Source: Odontesthes bonariensis (taxonomy: Eukaryota > Chordata > Actinopteri > Atheriniformes > Atherinopsidae). From it: a DNA stretch of 64,000 bases. Positions 48,104 through 62,849 of the stretch are shown here, one piece after another. Positions within the stretch are counted from its first letter, which is position 1, and each line of letters begins with the position of its first letter. The notes under the pieces are model-generated. The model saw nothing but the letters and a program-made list of their open reading frames with translations. It made no database searches and was not told the DNA's origin. The stretch covers positions 18,448,248-18,512,247 of the forward strand of contig NC_134519.1 of the NCBI RefSeq assembly GCF_027942865.1, read 5' to 3'. The position numbers and the translations under genes were made by a program.

Positions 48104-48120
48104 CGTCCCTGGGTGGGCTC

Positions 48121-48160
<40 letters not shown>

Positions 48161-48177
48161 AATTGCGCCACAGAGAC
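48104..48177 (-). tRNA. tRNA-Asn (anticodon GTT)
   Basis: The minus strand starts GTCTCTGTGGCGCAATTGG and folds as a full cloverleaf. The acceptor pairs GTCTCTG with CAGGGAC (one G-T wobble), the anticodon stem TTCGG/CCGAA flanks a loop with GTT (plus-strand AAC at 48141-48143), and the T arm is GGTGGTTCGAGCCCACC. It closely resembles vertebrate nuclear tRNA-Asn. A TTTT terminator follows at 48096-48099. It looks functional. No intron is present. Confidence 0.95.
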
Positions 48178-49277: not shown

Positions 49278-49386
49278 CCCCTGACTGCAGACCGCAGATC
49301 GGGGCGGAGATCAACGTTGAGGGGGCGGGGCTCAACGTTGAGGGGGCGGAGCTCAATGACTCCTTTGCGGGTGCCATCTGGTGGCG
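49278..49386 (+). repeat. Left arm of the outer inverted repeat
   Basis: Starts CCCCTGACTGCAGACCGCAG and contains two direct copies of CAACGTTGAGGGGGCGG, then ends in ATCTGGTGGCG. The complement recurs almost exactly at 51331-51455. Beyond the start, weaker similarity to the sequence past the right arm may continue (AATTGCG and CATGT shared). Confidence 0.85.
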
Positions 49387-49454
49387 GAGACCATGCAGCA
49401 CATTCACAAACAGCAAGCAGCACCGAGATGCCTAAAATAAGGAATCAATTATAA

Positions 49455-49552
49455 CTGTATATAAAACAATTATAATAATATATATTAGATATATAATTAT
49501 ATATATGAAACAATTATATATATATTAGATAGATAATTATATATATATAAGC
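49455..49552. repeat. AT-rich microsatellite
   Basis: TATATATA and TATTAGATA repeats inside the outer inverted-repeat unit. Confidence 0.8.
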
Positions 49553-49867
49553 ACACAGTTTGACCAATCAACTATCTGCAGACTGAGATCAGCTGATTAT
49601 CTGAGTCAAGACTGTCGTACTGTTGCCTGTTTGGGACGAAAACCTGCAGCTGGTGATGGAAATTGAATCATTTTGAACCATTGTCTCATAAAGTGGTTCC
49701 CTACCCGAAGCTTCATTCAATTCCCTTGGGTTACATATACTGGTAGGGGTGGGCGATATGGGCAAAAAAAAATATCTCGATATTTTTTAGGATTTTCACG
49801 ATAAAGATATTTTGACGATATTTAAAAAAAAATTCAAACTTGCGTTAAGATCACAATAAAATGAACA

Positions 49868-50520
49868 TAAGCATGCAAGTCTAAGAACACACGGCCGGTA
49901 CAGTGAAACTGCGAATGGCTCATTAAATCAGTTATGGTTCCTTTGATCGCTCTACCGTTACTTGGATAACTGTGGCAATTCTAGAGCTAATACATGCAAA
50001 CGAGCGCTGACCTTCGGGGATGCGTGCATTTATCAGACCCAAAACCCATGCGGGGTGCCTCTCGGGGTGCCCCGGCTGCTTTGGTGACTGATAACCTCGA
50101 GCCGTTTCTCAGGCTTCTTCTCCCTCCGGAGAGGGAGCCTGAGAAACGGCTACCACATCCAAGGAAGGCAGCAGGCGCGCAAATTACCCACTCCCGACTC
50201 GGGGAGGTAGTGACGAAAAATAACAATACAGGACACTTTAAATCCTTTAACAGGGATCAATTGAAGGGCAAGTCTGGTGCCAGCAGCCGCGGTAATTCCA
50301 GCTCCAATAGCGCATCTTAAAGTTGCTGCAGTTAAAAAGCTCGTAGTTGGATCTCGGGATCGAGCTGACGGTCCGCCGCGAGGCGAGCTGCCGTCTGTCC
50401 CAGCCCCTGCCTCTCGCTGTCCTAGCCCCTGCCTCTCGGCGCCCCCTCGATGCTCTTAGCTGAGTGTCCCGCGGTCCGAAGCGTTTACTTTGAAAAAATT
50501 AGAGCGTTCAAAGCAGGGCG
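49868..50520 (+). pseudogene. 18S rRNA gene fragment, rearranged
   Basis: Begins near GCATGCAAGTCTAAG and runs through ACACGGCCGGTACAGTGAAA, the universal GTGCCAGCAGCCGCGGTAAT and AAAGCTCGTAGTTGGATCTC to about TTTGAAAAAATTAGAGCG. This corresponds to roughly the 5' third of 18S. Wording such as CTCTACCGTTACTTGGATAA fits teleost 18S. Internal sequence is missing: about 130 nt between the CTCGAGCCG and CGGAGAGGGAG regions is replaced by an inverted copy of nearby sequence, and a further block before CACTTTAAATCC is lost. A CAGCCCCTGCCTCTCG unit is also duplicated. It cannot be a working rRNA gene. Confidence 0.93.
50101..50150. repeat. Palindrome inside the 18S fragment
   Basis: GCCGTTTCTCAGGCT (50101-50115) is the exact complement of 50136-50150, with further partial pairing toward the centre. 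Normal 18S has only the right arm, so the left arm is an added inverted copy at the deletion point. Confidence 0.85.
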
Positions 50521-51330
50521 TGGTAAGGGCAGAGGACCACTGGCGCCGCACTTTATTGATTTTTGGCGATTGAGGAAAAAAAAAAAAAAAAAAAAAAACT
50601 TTTATTTTTTTTTTTTTTGCCTATATCTCGATATTGCAAAATTACTCATCGTCAAAACAACATTCACGATAATTTCGCAAACGATACATATCGCCCACCC
50701 CTATCTGGCAGTAGCGATTGTTGCACCAAATAAAGCAAATATGATACATCTCTTCTGTATATAATAACACAATAATTTAAAAACAATGGGAAAAGTTTTG
50801 GTTTGTCATTCATATTTTCTTTGGGAGTGTTTGGTGTAATAAAGAGGGTGCTTGTGTTACTTCACGTGTTTTTATTCAAGAAAAGTAGTTTTTGCACAGT
50901 AGAAGGGCTCAAATGGTTTCTTTTTTTTTTTAGACAATTTCTCCAGCGAGTTTGAAGCATGCTTCGAAGCTTCGGTGTTATTTATTTAAAAAAAAAAAAC
51001 GAGTGTAGGGGCATAGTGCTATAACTTGTTTTTTGACAGTTCTCGTTTATTTTTGAAAACCGGAAGTCACCACATGCTGTTGAAAGTTAGCGCTGAGTTT
51101 CTCAGTCGTCTCCGTGGTGTAAGATAATAACTAAGCTAATAACAAAGAACACAGTGTATCGTCACAGAGAGCATAGCATATTTTAAAATGAAAAAAATGT
51201 TACTTTCTTCCTTGTCTGTCACAAATATTGCAAAATAGCACATTAAAAAACGAATCTACTTCTTCTCTTCCACACAGTCTTCTTCTGCGGTTCAATGTGT
51301 TGTTCTATGTTGAGCATCAACGTTGAGCAC

Positions 51331-51455
51331 CGCCACCAGATGGCACCCGCAAAGGAGTCATTGAGCTCCGCCCCCTCAACGTTGAGCTCCGCCCCCTCAA
51401 CGTTCCGCCCCCTCAACGTTGATCTCCGCCCCGATCTGCGGTCTGCAGTCAGGGG
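51331..51455 (-). repeat. Right arm of the outer inverted repeat
   Basis: Complement of 49278-49386, from CGCCACCAGATGGCACCCGC to CTGCAGTCAGGGG. It carries one more CAACGTT unit than the left arm. The hAT element at 51458 has inserted at its outer end. Confidence 0.85.
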
Positions 51456-51457
51456 CT

Positions 51458-52214
51458 TAGTGATGGGATTTTCGGCTCTTTTTCGAGATTCGGCTCTAAT
51501 GGCTCTTCTTACTGTGGAGAGCCGGCTCTTTCGGCTCCCAAACGGCTCCCCATATATATATTTTTTACATAATTAATTAATAGCTTAAACCTAATTTTAT
51601 AACATTTTGTTTCATTATTGACATTGTTAAGCACTTATGATGAGTAAAAATGTGGCATAACAATGCTTTATAAATAAAAGTTTGATTATAACCAATTAAA
51701 TTATCACAAAATAGCACCACTTCCACAAAAATAACTTAAAATAAATTAAACAGTTATAAATACAAACAAGCTTGACACAGGACAGCAGAGGAAAGGAAAA
51801 AAGTGGACAAACTTTTTTTCAGTGTTTCCGTCACCTTATTAATTGAAAGCTGCTTGTGATTGGTCAGATGTGTGGAGCACACGCTTGACATGAGGGCAGT
51901 GGAGACATTAAGGCACCGACTGAGGAAAAAAACTCCGTCTAGCACTGGCAGAAGCAGAGCAAAACGCGCAAGGAGGGGGAGAGGGAGGGAGAGGGAGAGG
52001 GAGAGGGGAGAGACACGATGTGGGGGAAAAACTGTCGGCTCTGTGGCACTTGCAGAGCACAAGTGCAACGACAGGGAGGCGGAGAGATACTGAAAGAAAA
52101 AAAACGGCTCCCAAATAGGATCCCAAAACGGCTCCCATTGTGTAGCCGGTTCCTGTCGTTCACTTGAAAGAGCCGGCTCTTAGAGCCGGATCGTTCGCGA
52201 CCGACACATCACTA
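51458..52214. mobile_element. hAT-type non-autonomous element with 8-bp target duplication
   Basis: The 757-bp element starts TAGTGATG and ends CATCACTA, flanked by perfect 8-bp repeats CAGGGGCT (51450-51457 and 52215-52222). Both subterminal regions are packed with CGGCTCTTT and CGGCTCCC motifs, typical of transposase-binding repeats. No transposase frame was recognised. A GAGAGG-rich purine tract lies near 51.97-52.01 kb. Its start matches that of the hAT element at 29.40 kb, but the interiors differ. Confidence 0.85.
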
Positions 52215-52229
52215 CAGGGGCTGCTCTAA

Positions 52230-56215: not shown

Positions 56216-59200
56216 TTAAATTCTTTTCAATAAACCTGTATCATTTAGATACATAAGTAAATATCTGATTCTTATTTCTTTCATTTCTTGTTCCTGCAAT
56301 ACATTGTTAATTTCATTTTCTGCCTCAAGGTTTTTCCATATCTGTCTGGATTGATCAAACTTTTTACATTTAAATAAAACATGTGCGACATCTTCTAACA
56401 CTTGACATTCTGAGCACATGCCATTACTTTTCCCTATCAAATGTAAACTAGCGTTAAGGCCTGTATGACCCAATCTCAGTCTGGTAAATGCGACTTCTTC
56501 CTGTCTGTTAAGACCCAATGATGTAATTCTTTTCCCTCCTATACTTCTCTGGTTCTGATGGTAGTGTCTGGCATTACTCTCTGCTTCCCATTCATCTTGC
56601 CATCTTTTCATAATTTCTGCTTGGATAAATGCTTTAATATCACCTTTGCCCATTGGAACTTGAATCGTAACTTGCTCTGATTCCATTGCCTTTTTAGCTA
56701 GTTTGTCAGCCATTTCGTTTCCCATAATGCCATAATGGCCTGGAATCCAACAAAACTGAATTATTAATCCTAGGTTAGAAATATTTAATAACAGGTGCTT
56801 CACTTCTAATATCAGATCCTCACGTGTTGTGTTTCCTGTTATGAAACTTTGTAGTGCTGCCATAGAGTCAGTACAGATAATTGTTCTACGAGGCTTGATA
56901 TCTTCCACCCATCGTAGGGCTGTTATTATTGCAGTCATTTCTATAGAGTATATTGATAGGAAGTCACTCACTCTGTATTTGTATCTCTTATCAAATTCTG
57001 GGATGTAAATACCAATACCACACCGACCATTGAGGTCTTTAGATCCATCTGTAAATATTTTCATATATCCATAATAATTATTCAAATAGTTTAAGCAAGC
57101 ATTAGTAAAACTTTGTTTGATACTATGTTCTCTTTTTTCTGCCAATAAATCAATGTTTACTATTGAATCAGGGAGCACCCACGGAGGAATACAACTTAAA
57201 GCTAATGCTGGTCCACATTTTATCTCTTTTAGACCATAATTATTAACTAATTTATCAATATTCCAACCAAACCCATTGGACTTTTTTAGAATATTCCCAA
57301 CAATCATTAAATACAGAGAGAGATGGGTTGTTAGAACTTCCCTTCAGCCTGACCCAGTAGGTTAATGACAATTTATCATATCTGAACTTAATAGGAGGTT
57401 CCTTGGCTTCTACTAATAAAGCACTTGTAGGAGTTGTTGAATAGGCACCTAGGGCAATCCTTAGAGCCCTAAATTGCATTCTTTCAATTTTCTTAAGGGA
57501 AGACTTACATGCTGAGCTATATATTATACAACCATACTCAATATTTGATCTGATCAGTGCTATATATATGTCAATCAAAGATTGCCTGTCAGTTCCCCAG
57601 TTATGTCCAGTGACCATCCTCATAAGATTAATTACCTTTTTACATTTGGTTTCAATATATTCGATATGATATTTCCATGTGAGTTTGGAGTCCAACCACA
57701 TTCCCAGATACTTAAATTTTTCCCTTCTCTCAAGTTGCTGATTATATAGCATAAGTTTGTGGGTTTCATGAACTTTCTTCCTGGTAAAATACACAACCTG
57801 TGATTTTTGTACAGAAAATTTAAAACCCCAATCCACTCCCCATTGCTCAAGTATATTAATATACTTTTGCATCTTGCCATTAACATATGTGATGTTGCGC
57901 CCTCTTCTCCAGATGACAGCATCATCTGCATATAATAAACCTTCATTATTTTCTCCCAGTTTCTCGTATATGTCATTAATCATTATATTGAACAAGATCG
58001 GACTAATAACACTTCCTTGAGGAATACCATTTTCTACAATAAATTCATCGGATAGTGTATCACCTACTTTGATCCATATGGACCGTTGAGAAAGGAAGTT
58101 AAGTATATAGTTGTACATTTTCCCATGAATTCCTAATTTTTCTAGCTTGATCAAAAGACCTTCTCTCCACATAGTATCATAAGCTTTCTCAATATCCAGA
58201 AACACTGCAACCATCACTTCTTTCATTACTAATGACTTTTCAATTTCATTGCATACTTTTACCAAAGCATCAGTTGTTGACTTGCACTTCCTAAATCCTG
58301 TTTGATATCCTTTAAGAGGGTTGGTGTATTCTAAGAAATAATTTAGACGTGTTACTAAAAGTTTTTCATTAGTTTGCCAAGATGTGAAGTGAGTGCAATA
58401 GGTCTATAATTTCCTGGGTCACTTGAGTCTTTCCCTGGTTTAGGGAATGGAAGGATTCTCGCCCATTTCCATATATATGGTAATTTCCCTTCATTCCATA
58501 CTTTGTTAAAAAGATTAAGTATTTTTTCTAAAATATTGTTCGGTAATTTCCTGAACATAACATAACATAAGTTATCATTACCTGGAGCAGAGTATGCAGT
58601 ATTATTTAATGCCCTTTTAAGTTCTGTCATATTAAACTCTGAATCCATAAAAGACATATTTGATTCTTTGGTGTATAAGATATTCCGGTTTACTTTCATT
58701 ACTTCTTTCCGTTTTTTATATCGTTCCTCAAGATGGTTACCCTTGTGTATATCTGCAAAACCTTTAGCCAGCATATTGGCTTTTATCAATATCTGAAATG
58801 GCTTGAATCCCATCTTTGATTAAAACAGGGATATGAGGAGGTTTATATTTTCCTATCATCTTCTTTATCATCATCCAAACTTCATTCAAAGTTGTTTCTC
58901 TACCTATTGAAGAACAAAATTGTCTCCATGATTCCTACTTAGTCTCTTTAATTATTTTCCGAGCTACAGCCTTCTTCCCTTGATAACTAATAAGATTGTC
59001 CATCGTAAGTGTTCTACGTAGTATTTTAAAGGCTCTATTCCTATCCTTGATGGCTTTAGAGCACTTATCGTTCCACCATGGAACATTAATTTGTTTCTTT
59101 TGATTTTGATTAATAGGAATACTTTGACTAGCAGCAGAAAATATAAACGCACTGACATTTCCATTCATTTCATCAACTGTTTGTTCATTATTAATGGATA

Positions 59201-59828
59201 GATTTCCACTTCCTTCACATATTTCTACATATTTCTCCCAGTCTGCTTTTTTAAAAACCCATCTTTGAGGAACATAGCCTTGTTCAATCTTAATCTCAAC
59301 ATCAACTTGGCATATAATTGGGAAGTGGTCACTACCCATGCTTGTATTTGTATCTATTTCCTACTCACATCTACTAGCAATTTTCCTATTTACTAAGGTA
59401 AGATCAATACAGGACATTTCATTTTTATAAATATTAATTCTAGTGCCATGGCCATTATTTAAACATACTAACATTCTGTCATTCATCATGTCTTCTACTG
59501 CTTCACCATTCAAATCTGCCTGTTTACTGCCCCATAAACTATTGTGAGCATTGAAGTCCCCACACCAAATCGCTCTGCTGTTTTTCTTGACAATACTTTT
59601 CAGTAATTCACTAGTTAATGGTTTACATGGGTTGTAATAGTTAATGATTGTAAAATTCCCTCTAACTTCATTAAATATTTCAGTAATCACACATTCATGA
59701 TCTTTGGACTTAGTATATCTATACGGAACTCCTAATTTAATAAATGTCATACACCCCCCACCTCTATCTTTTTCTCTATCATATCTGATGCTATTGTATC
59801 CTTTCAGTACTAGTATTTTGCCCAGCAT
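56216..59828 (-). pseudogene. LINE ORF2: endonuclease - reverse transcriptase - RNase H
   Basis: Minus-strand blocks in order. Endonuclease, about 59.83-58.94 kb: 'WCGDFNAHNSLWGS' and, past an in-frame TAG near 59.36 kb, 'GSDHFPI'. Reverse transcriptase, about 58.8-57.3 kb: 'WARILPFPKPGKD', 'GNYRPIALTSHLGK', 'FLDIEKAYDTMW', 'GIPQGSVISPILFNIM' and catalytic YADD near 57.93 kb. RNase H, about 57.3-56.5 kb: 'IFTDGSKD', 'CTDSMAALQSF' and 'WIPGHYGIMGNEMADKLAKK'. A Cys/His motif follows ('CSECQVLEDVAHVLFKC'). A second TAG lies near 58.93 kb, and frame changes lie near 58.8, 58.36 and 57.28 kb. Codons elsewhere remain well preserved. Confidence 0.9.
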
Positions 59829-62541
59829 ATTTACTATTCATCATCTCTTGTATCTTGTTTGTTTGTGAACTGAATCCTAAAAAGTCATTGGCAGTTTCTA
59901 CAATTAATTTGACCTTATCAATTCCCTGTGGGAGATCTGTTATTTTAATAATCACTGTGCAAATAAAGGCAAGAAAGTCACTTTTCTTAACCAATATCAT
60001 TTCTTCTGACATTTTCTTTTTGAAATGGCAGCATTCTGACTGATGAGCATCAGGCTTATTGGCCTGCTGGATTCTCTCATTATAACTCCTGGGATTCACT
60101 CTGGGGTTTGCTCCTACCTATTTTTAACCTCTCTCTTTCCCTCAGCTCCGTCCCCACCTGCTTTAAAACCAGCACCATCATTCCCATCCCCAAGCAGCAG
60201 AAGGTGACCAGCCTAAATGACTGGCGCCCCATAGCCCTCACCCCCATTATCAGCAAGTGCTTTGAGAGCCTGGTCAAAGGACTCATATGCCCCATGCTTC
60301 CCCCCACCCTCGATCCCTTGCAGTTCGCTTACAGAGCCAACAGGAGCACAGAAGATGCCATCGCCCACGTCCTCCACACGGCCCTCTCCCACCTAGAGGG
60401 CAGGGGCACCTATGTGAGGATGCTGTTTGTGGACTACAGCTCCGCATTTAATACCATAATTCCCTCCAGGCTAGATGGCAAGCTCCGGGACCTGGGCCTG
60501 AACACACCACTGTGCGACTGGATCCTGGACTTCCTGACAGACCGCCCCCAGTCGGTGAGAGTGGCTGGTCGGACCTCCTCCAGTCTGAGTCTCAGCATTG
60601 GGGCACCACAGGGCTGTGTCCTCAGCCCTCCCCTGTACTCCCTGTACACCTACGACTGCGTAGCAACACAGATATCGAACCATGTTGTGAAGTTCGCTGA
60701 CGACACGGCAGTGGTGGGTCTGATTTCTGGCGGCGATGAGTCGGCCTACAGGGAGGAGGTGGCAATCTTGGAGCAGTGGTGTATGGCCAATCACCTCTCT
60801 CTGAATGTCAGCAAGACCAAAGAGATCGTGGTGGACTACAGGAAAAAGAAGGAGGAGCTACAACCAGTCACCATCAACGGCTCAGAGGTGGAGAGGGTGG
60901 ACACCTTCAAATATCTTGGTGTAAACATTGAGAAGGACCTGACTTGGGACTGCCATGTGACCGCAGTTGTCAGAAAGGCCCAACAGCGCCTGTATGGACT
61001 CAGGCGCCTGAAGCAATTCGGCCTTAGACCCAACACCATCAGGGACTTCTACAGAGGCACAGTAGAGAGCCTCTTGACAGGCAGCTTCACATCCTGGTAC
61101 GGCAGCTGTACGGACAGAAACCGCAAGGCGTTGAGGAGGGTTGTTCGCACTGCCAAGAACATCACCGGGTGTGAGCTGCCCAGTCTGGAGGACCTCTACG
61201 CCCAGCGCTGCCTGAACAAATCCCTGAGGATTATTAAAGACCCCACCCACCCCCATAAAAACATTTTTTCCCCGCTAAAATCCAAAAGGGTGAAGGGATA
61301 CAAGATCCTACCAACGCGTACCAGCAGACTGAGGAACAGTTTTTTCCCACAGGCTGTCAGACTTTTAAACAACAGTGAAAACTGATATGCTTGCCTATGT
61401 TTATTTATTTATTGTTTTAAGTGTTTTAGGTTTTAGGTTGTTTTTATCATGTTTTATTTTGTTTTTAGTATATCGGAGCTTCCAAGCGCAAAGTTTTTCA
61501 CATGTATGTACCCACAGTGCAGCTAAGTGACGAATAAAGTGAATCTGTTCTGTTTACTGGGTTGTTAGCACTTAACCTCCCAGTCTTTTGTTCAATTATA
61601 TCGTGAGGAACTTCAAGGTTATTTTTCTTCACAATATCAATTTTCTTTGCAGCCTCTGCATAAGAAACTTTATGGGAGATTTTACACTTCTGGACTTCTC
61701 TGGCCTCTTTGTGTTTCTCACAACCTCCATAAGCTGCACTATGGTTGCCTCCACAATTACAGCATTTCAATACAGCATCTTGTTCGCATTTACCATATTC
61801 ATGCTCTTCTCCACACTTAGCACATCTAGGTTTTCCTCGGCATTGATTAGCAACATGACCCAATCGTTGACACTTAAAGCATCTTAATGGAGGGGGAGTA
61901 TACTCTCGCACTGTATAAGACATATAGCCCATTTGAACTCTGGTTGGTATCTCTTTATTGAAGCATAACAACATAGACATACTTTCTATTTTCTCTTTGC
62001 CTTTTGTCAGGCGTTTAGCTTCAACAACACCGTACTCTTTTAAACTTTCCATAATCTCCTCTATTGTTACCGAAATTGGAATTCCATATATTACCCCTCT
62101 GCTCTTAGATGTTGCACCAGGAATATGTGATGTTATCTTAAGTGAATTGAGTGTAGTTTTCTTGAGAATGTTATTTTGCTGCTCCTTAGAGTTTGCAAAG
62201 ATCAATATCCTTCCATTTCCCATGAACCGCGCATGATTAATCTTGCCCATTTCCTTCTCAATTGCTTTCGTTATATGAATTGGGTGTACATCGGGTCCTC
62301 CTTTTTGATCAAAAACTACAATCACTTTCCAAACTTCATCCTGGGCTCTCAATGGGTTGCTCAGTTCAGCTTTGTTCTTCTTCGCCATTATCGTTGATTC
62401 TATGGAATCCCCTTCACTGTCTGATCGTTGCCTTGCTTGCTTTTTGTTATTTATAACATCCTCCCAAAACATATTCCCATCATCAAGCATGTTATCTAAA
62501 CTTAGAGATGGAAACTGTCCACCAGATGTCTCAGCCATTGT
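59791..62541 (-). pseudogene. LINE ORF1: gag-like nucleic-acid-binding protein, interrupted
   Basis: Starts MAETSGGQFPSLSLDN at 62538 on the minus strand. The middle resembles an RNA-binding fold ('WKVIVVFDQKGG', 'SRGVIYGIPISVTIEEIM'). Three zinc knuckles follow in 61.92-61.70 kb: CFKCQRLGHVANQC, CAKCGEEHEYGKC and CCNCGGNHSAAYGGC. The frame is open until the Rex1-like insertion near 61.56 kb and resumes on the far side near 60.10 kb with '[16 protein letters not shown]', ending about 59.79 kb just before ORF2. Apart from that insertion, ORF1 looks undamaged. Confidence 0.85.
60105..61558 (+). mobile_element. Rex1-like LINE, 5'-truncated, nested insertion
   Basis: Plus strand 60108-61385 is open for 425 codons and encodes a reverse transcriptase from motif 0 to the C-terminus: '[16 protein letters not shown]', '[16 protein letters not shown]', '[18 protein letters not shown]', catalytic FADD and '[14 protein letters not shown]'. 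The endonuclease is missing, so it is 5'-truncated. The 'YSSAFNTI' stretch matches the Rex1/Babar group. A 3' UTR with AATAAAG ends near 61.55 kb. It sits inside ORF1 of the minus-strand LINE, so it is the younger of the two. Any target duplication is short and uncertain. The long open frame suggests a recent arrival. Confidence 0.88.
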
Positions 62542-62849
62542 CCAAATTACATTCACTGTGAATAGTTTACCGTCCTTCTGTTGTTTTGCTTCACAAACGA
62601 TATTCCCGCTGTTCGAAACTGCCTCTGCTTCCAGGTGAGCTAATCACTCCGTTGTCTCCAAAAGAGTCCCTGCAGCAGTCTGCAGCATTTGTACGATCCA
62701 GGTCATACCATGTGCTGATTGGTGTAAGGGGGAGTGCACCAGAATCAATGATAGGAAGTATAATTGATTGATTTAGTACTATGGTTTCAATATACTAGGA
62801 AGTATAATTGATTGTTTTTTATAATAGAGGGAAATGTATTTTAAGGTTT

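What the first reader, a model, noticed from the sequence alone, without database searches (positions are those of the whole stretch)
49744..50703. 18S rDNA fragment carried inside an inverted-repeat transposable element
About 650 bp of teleost-like 18S rRNA sequence lies wholly between two inverted ends (TAGGGGTGGGCGATA...). SINEs built from 5S or 28S rRNA are known. A DNA-transposon-like unit that has taken up 18S sequence is not something I know of. If other copies carry the same rearranged fragment, it is a mobile family that spreads rDNA pieces, which could confuse rDNA counts and 18S-based surveys.
Basis: partly seen in the sequence, partly recalled or inferred. Interest (0 to 1): 0.82.

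Follow-up and report, generated by a model that had tools for sequence, protein, structure and literature searches.

The report
18S rRNA fragment inside DNA transposon
A short DNA-transposon relic holds a scrambled piece of the 18S ribosomal RNA gene, most likely pasted in during repair of a DNA break; whether more copies exist could not be checked.

Summary
Window 49744-50703 is a 960-bp unit with perfect 17-nt inverted ends enclosing about 650 nt of eukaryotic 18S rRNA gene (Rfam SSU_rRNA_eukarya, 308.7 bits, E 1.5e-89).

The 18S part (49868/49872-50517) is collinear with 18S nt 45-776 (fungal-type reference numbering). It carries three scars: about 125 nt lost, with a 24-nt inverted copy of the next 18S stretch in their place (a hairpin); a 30-nt deletion; a 22-nt tandem duplication. 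Such scars suggest template switching during break repair. Best reading: a non-autonomous inverted-repeat transposon that took up 18S DNA as repair filler, like the published Pack-TIRs of animals, of which four (1.4%) were multicopy (PMC8277862).

There is no clean target-site duplication: only CTGG is shared, offset by one base. The decisive test, copies elsewhere in the genome, could not be run: the genome search did not complete in 19 of 19 tries. A mobile family spreading rDNA is therefore neither supported nor excluded. Partial 18S copies near TEs are reported in tilapia (PMC3503869), and Pokey carries other rDNA pieces (PMC3849761). Among the listed results of ten paper searches I saw no 18S-carrying inverted-repeat element. 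Solid but modest.

The parts
49744..49760 (+). left terminal inverted repeat TAGGGGTGGGCGATATG
   Evidence: 17 of 17 complementary to 50687-50703
49744..49867 (+). left transposon end, A+T-rich, not 18S
   Evidence: GC 0.28 over 49744-49869; 18S alignment starts at 49868 or 49872
49868..50517 (+). 18S rRNA gene fragment, collinear with 18S nt 45-776 (numbering of L008, a fungal-type 18S), with three scars
   Evidence: cmscan SSU_rRNA_eukarya 308.7 bits; pairwise alignment; BLAST blocks
50100..50123 (-). inverted copy of 50128-50151 (18S nt 383-406) lying where 18S nt about 255-379 are missing; forms a hairpin with a 4-nt loop
   Evidence: 22 of 24 complementary; L004 minus-strand BLAST match; folds at -46.9 kcal/mol, z -9.23, 0 of 200 shuffles as good
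50128..50151 (+). forward arm of the hairpin, ordinary 18S sequence
50232..50233 (+). junction of a 30-nt deletion (18S nt 488-517)
   Evidence: gap in alignment to L008; 31 Rfam positions shrunk to 1
50395..50438 (+). 22-nt tandem duplication in the variable part of the fragment
   Evidence: two copies, 95% alike
50518..50703 (+). right transposon end with an A run at about 50576-50598; 50518 to about 50573 is neither 18S nor recognised
   Evidence: GC 0.35; sequence
50687..50703 (+). right terminal inverted repeat

Best explanation
It is the relic of a non-autonomous terminal-inverted-repeat DNA transposon that acquired a piece of the 18S rRNA gene as repair filler, in one or few copies. Inferred steps: (1) a double-strand break or stalled fork arose inside the transposon; (2) repair synthesis copied 18S DNA from an rDNA unit; (3) on the way the growing end folded back and copied about 24 nt in reverse, about 125 nt and 30 nt were skipped, and slippage made a 22-nt tandem duplication; (4) the end rejoined the other half of the transposon. 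Shown: the ends, the cargo, its extent and its three scars. Inferred: the repair event, its order, and the low copy number. The hAT-like look of the ends is recalled, from no call. No function is expected: the cargo lacks more than half of 18S.
For: 18S lies wholly between one pair of perfect inverted ends. The cargo has a fold-back inverted copy, two deletions and a tandem duplication. In yeast, breaks yield very short templated inverted duplications (most about 5-34 bp) by a fold-back route (PMC11724301, abstract and section 15). Capture by template switching is the published account of animal Pack-TIRs, 208 of 370 in hAT elements (PMC8277862). No other copy of the unit in the window. No ORF of 150 aa or more in the unit, as expected of a non-autonomous element.
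Against: No clean target-site duplication: the flanks share only CTGG, offset by one, whereas gap filling should keep the element's duplication and a neighbouring element has a perfect 8-nt one. In PMC8277862 fillers are mostly local (160 of 281 within 15 kb of the parent) and the gap in the element is small (median 4.6% of its length); no second 18S hit lies in this 64-kb window. No cargo-free sister element was seen, so that the ends belong to a transposon family rests on their form alone. Beyond 17 nt the ends are not detectably similar. The scars could also be later mutations.
Confidence: 0.6

Rival explanations
1. A multicopy mobile family: after capture the chimeric unit kept working ends and a transposase acting in trans moved and amplified it, so that copies with the same scarred 18S fragment are dispersed.
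For: The 17-nt ends are perfect although the cargo has accumulated changes (7 of 199 otherwise invariant positions). A frog Pack-hAT-N8_XT was amplified to three chromosomes (PMC8277862). The flanks share CTGG, which could be a decayed duplication: 214 of 20000 random pairs share 4 nt at offset 0 or 1.
Against: One copy in 64 kb; published base rate four cases, 1.4%; no clean target duplication at this copy. Genome-wide copies untested: 19 of 19 searches unanswered.
Confidence: 0.2
2. The 18S fragment entered an existing transposon by another route, such as retroposition of rRNA by a LINE or insertion of extrachromosomal rDNA, and was rearranged later.
For: An A run (about 50576-50598) follows the fragment; LINE remains lie in the window.
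Against: No exact direct repeat of 6 nt or more joins the 18S start (49840-49884) with the region after the fragment and its A run (50515-50639); some 60 nt of other sequence lie between the 18S end and the A run.
Confidence: 0.1
3. Assembly artefact: an rDNA read was joined into a transposon locus.
For: rDNA is often misassembled (general knowledge); no reads were available to check.
Against: The fragment has an inverted copy, deletions and changes at conserved positions that a functional rDNA unit would not show, and both edges lie between one pair of perfect ends.
Confidence: 0.06

Closest known systems
Pack-TIRs of animals (PMC8277862; abstract, passages and sections 8, 12, 14 seen)
   Same: Host DNA between the two ends of one TIR element; capture explained by template switching; cargo within their 100-5000 bp limits
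   Different: Cargo is a repeated rRNA gene, heavily rearranged; no clean TSD. Their filters asked for a unique best parental hit, which would tend to discard rDNA captures (my inference); 'rrna' and 'ribosomal' occur 0 times in the main text
Pokey of Daphnia, piggyBac superfamily (PMC3849761; abstract passage and other passages seen)
   Same: DNA transposon carrying rDNA-derived sequence
   Different: Pokey carries IGS and ITS2 pieces as repeats and targets 28S genes; here a single rearranged 18S piece outside rDNA, different ends, no TTAA at the flanks (TTAA target recalled)
MER6 MITE with a SINE V domain (PMC6887750; abstract only seen)
   Same: Inverted-repeat element with foreign non-coding cargo
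   Different: Mariner-derived, cargo from a V-SINE, known from many genomes
Dispersed partial 18S copies of Nile tilapia (PMC3503869; passages and sections 10 and 13 seen)
   Same: Partial 18S copies outside arrays, TEs in the flanks of many rRNA gene copies
   Different: There TEs flank the copies; here the 18S lies between the two ends of one element

Membership tests
Pack-TIR | internal sequence of 100-5000 bp flanked by both ends of one TIR element | tested here: met
   17-nt perfect inverted ends around about 650 nt of 18S
Pack-TIR | both ends match at least 10 bp of the termini of a consensus element | not testable with these tools
   no repeat library held; own-genome search unanswered 19 of 19 times
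Pack-TIR | parental copy of similar length (80-120%) and at least 90% identity, unique best hit | tested here: inconclusive
   650 nt against an 18S span of 732 nt (nt 45-776) in a fungal-type reference gives about 89%; identity to the species' own 18S not testable; uniqueness would not be expected of rDNA
Pack-TIR | microhomology at breakpoints (190 of 281 cases had it) | not testable with these tools
   needs the species' own 18S and a cargo-free element
hAT superfamily | 8-bp target-site duplication | tested here: not met
   TATACTGG against TCTGGCAG; only CTGG shared, offset by one. Not filed as a hAT
hAT superfamily | hAT transposase, in the element or in a related autonomous copy | not testable with these tools
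   no ORF of 150 aa or more in the unit; related copies not searchable
rRNA-derived SINE | rRNA-derived head starting the unit, tail at the 3' end, target duplications around it, no inverted ends | tested here: not met
   unit has inverted ends; no exact direct repeat of 6 nt or more around the 18S part and its A run. Defining features recalled
Pokey (piggyBac) | TTAA target duplication and IGS/ITS2 repeats | tested here: not met
   flanks CATATACTGG and TCTGGCAGTA; cargo is 18S. TTAA recalled; IGS/ITS2 from PMC3849761

The most novel reading that the evidence does not exclude
The unit is one copy of a transposon family that carries a fixed, hairpin-bearing 18S fragment and has spread it through the genome, giving dispersed 18S decoys and, if transcribed, a hairpin RNA with a 24-nt arm matching 18S.
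Probability: 0.2. Interest if true: 0.72.

Novelty: new member of a known kind. Interest (0 to 1): 0.36.

Why it matters
That transposable elements may move rDNA is a standing suggestion in fish and beetle studies (PMC3503869, sections 10 and 13; PMC3209441, passages), resting there on TEs found near rRNA genes. A unit with 18S strictly between one element's ends and with readable scars shows one concrete route. If multicopy, it could inflate 18S counts and yield odd 18S reads. The filters of the Pack-TIR survey (unique best parental hit) would tend to miss rDNA captures, so such cases may be under-counted (inference).

Tried and rejected
Copies elsewhere. The genome search on the own genome was unanswered in 19 of 19 tries. 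The 17-nt end in viral contigs gave one hit (L001, 4,350 bases held of a 45,036-base contig) with a single match and no inverted partner in the stretch held; I take it as chance. A 51-nt 18S pattern had no match in genome contigs or viral contigs. A 25-nt 18S pattern had none in viral contigs and 9 in genome contigs: 8 of 9 gave SSU_rRNA_eukarya hits and L009 an end-truncated SSU_rRNA_microsporidia hit. I read them as eukaryotic contamination and used them as 18S references. Plasmids: 2 records with partial similarity, covering 42% and 10% of the query. Phages: none. Metagenome contigs and E. coli genomes were not searched.

microRNA reading. The 50100-50151 hairpin gives Rfam miRNA hits below their gathering scores (best mir-8364, 32.7 bits against 67), with several unrelated miRNA models alongside; taken as generic hairpin hits and rejected.

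Retrocopy. No exact direct repeat of 6 nt or more around the 18S part and its A run.

Target duplication. A scan with shifted ends gave CTGG exactly, or 7 nt with a mismatch. The scan tried many offsets and lengths, so the 214 of 20000 chance figure for one fixed test understates chance. Not accepted as a TSD.

Divergence. Over the whole alignment 25 of 268 positions invariant in nine references differ, many of them in poorly aligned or lineage-variable stretches. I then chose four well-aligned blocks by hand, after seeing that count: 7 of 199 (1 of 31, 0 of 62, 5 of 85, 1 of 21). Dropped before both counts: the inverted copy and the variable stretch 50359-50478. Leave-one-out controls on the references range from 0 of 268 (L002, L006, L008, which are probably close kin) to 36 of 304 (L007), so the count alone does not prove a pseudogene; the deletions do. 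Some of the 7 may be normal for the species.

Papers. Ten searches. Several returned capped lists (15-20 shown of 23 to 2,713), of which I saw titles and abstract starts; 8 papers were opened, none read whole. The first 14 nt of the inverted end occur in 0 held papers. Absence of a report is thus limited to these lists. PMC7599744 was opened by term search and its hits were in the reference list only.

Full report
What is there. Window 49744-50703 is bounded by TAGGGGTGGGCGATATG and its exact reverse complement (17 of 17). With up to three mismatches the 15-nt core has two matches in 64 kb, these two, both exact; 7 of 100 shuffles had two or more matches at that tolerance. Past 17 nt the ends are not detectably alike (21 of 200 shuffles as good). 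Between them cmscan finds eukaryotic SSU rRNA (308.7 bits, E 1.5e-89). The reported span 49837-50723 is stretched by the model. Alignment to a complete fungal-type 18S (L008, taken as contamination in a bacterial assembly) limits the 18S part to 49868/49872-50517, 18S nt 45-776, and 6 of 9 reference contigs give the same three collinear blocks.

Scars in the cargo. (a) 18S nt about 255-379 are missing, and in their place stands 50100-50123, an inverted copy of 50128-50151 (18S nt 383-406), 22 of 24 complementary and seen directly as a minus-strand match to L004. As RNA the hairpin folds at -46.9 kcal/mol, z -9.23, 0 of 200 shuffles as good. (b) 18S nt 488-517 (30 nt) are missing at 50232/50233 (31 Rfam positions shrink to 1). 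(c) A 22-nt tandem duplication at 50395-50438, 95% alike. The cargo is G+C-richer (0.54) than the element's ends (0.28 and 0.35) and the flanks (0.39 and 0.38).

Age. The cargo differs from nine 18S references at 7 of 199 positions invariant among them, in four hand-chosen blocks, and at 25 of 268 over the whole alignment, a figure inflated by poor alignment and lineage differences. The inverted copy differs from its source at 2 of 24 sites, the tandem copies at 1 of 22. The numbers are too small for a date but allow the scars to be about as old as the capture (inference).

Setting. The unit lies inside a longer inverted-repeat structure (arms 49278-49387 and 51330-51455). Overlapping its right edge, 51458-52214 is a further element with TAGTGATG ends and a perfect 8-nt target duplication CAGGGGCT. 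With that element skipped, the long structure is flanked by GCTCCAAGAATT and GCTCTAAGAATT, 11 of 12; 13 of 1000 random pairs align as well. The locus is thus a nest of DNA transposons. The 18S unit itself has no clean target duplication: CATATACTGG and TCTGGCAGTA share CTGG offset by one; 214 of 20000 random pairs share 4 nt at offset 0 or 1, and more offsets than these were scanned. A decayed duplication is possible, not shown.

Mechanism. Foreign DNA within one element's ends, with a fold-back inversion, deletions and a tandem duplication, points to break repair with template switching. In yeast, very short inverted templated insertions (most about 5-34 bp) arise at breaks by fold-back (PMC11724301, abstract and section 15). 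In animals, 370 Pack-TIRs were found in 100 genomes, 208 in hAT elements; single-copy ones are attributed to gap filling, and four (1.4%) were multicopy (PMC8277862: abstract, passages, sections 8, 12, 14). The unit fits that class in anatomy. Against: fillers there are mostly local (160 of 281 within 15 kb), gaps are small, and gap filling should keep the target duplication; here no other 18S hit lies in the window and the duplication is not clean.

Comparison. rDNA inside a DNA transposon has a precedent in Pokey (IGS and ITS2 pieces; PMC3849761, passages). [quoted passage not shown]). A seabass BAC scaffold held short 18S fragments (the poly(A) tail and 40-80 bp, in that paper's words; PMC4110674, section 22). 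Among the listed results of ten paper searches I saw no 18S inside a TIR element.

What could not be done. The own-genome search was unanswered 19 of 19 times, so copy number, cargo-free sisters and empty sites are unknown. No animal 18S was reached, so 'teleost' and breakpoint microhomology are not claimed as results. That the ends look hAT-like is recalled; the 8-bp duplication test was not met, and the unit is not filed as a hAT.

Verdict. The feature is real and well delimited. The most likely explanation is a Pack-TIR-like capture, probably low-copy (0.6). An rDNA-spreading mobile family stays open at about one in five.

Noticed in passing
window 51458-52214: A 757-bp element with TAGTGATG...CATCACTA ends and a perfect 8-nt target duplication CAGGGGCT (51450-51457 and 52215-52222), hAT-like in form, inserted at the right edge of the long inverted-repeat structure.
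   Followed up: partly
window 49278-51455: A longer inverted-repeat structure around the 18S unit, arms 49278-49387 and 51330-51455 with 21-nt G+C-rich subrepeats, flanked by an 11-of-12 direct repeat when the neighbouring element is skipped.
   Followed up: partly
window 56216-62556: Minus-strand LINE remains: zinc knuckle (61498-62556), endonuclease (59361-59828), reverse transcriptase (57255-58265), RNase H (56216-57307); a plus-strand reverse transcriptase ORF (60108-61385) lies between the first two, perhaps a second LINE inserted there.
   Followed up: no
window 48104-48177: A tRNA-Asn (GTT) on the minus strand, 68.4 bits, about 1.6 kb left of the 18S unit; gene or relic not decided.
   Followed up: no
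NZ_CP050525.1 (L011) and NZ_CP082873.1 (L012): Two public bacterial plasmid records without annotated features contain eukaryotic-type 18S sequence, apparently contamination.
   Followed up: partly
L002-L010: Nine contigs of bacterial genome assemblies carry eukaryotic-type SSU rRNA (8 SSU_rRNA_eukarya, 1 SSU_rRNA_microsporidia hit), apparently contamination or bin mixing.
   Followed up: partly
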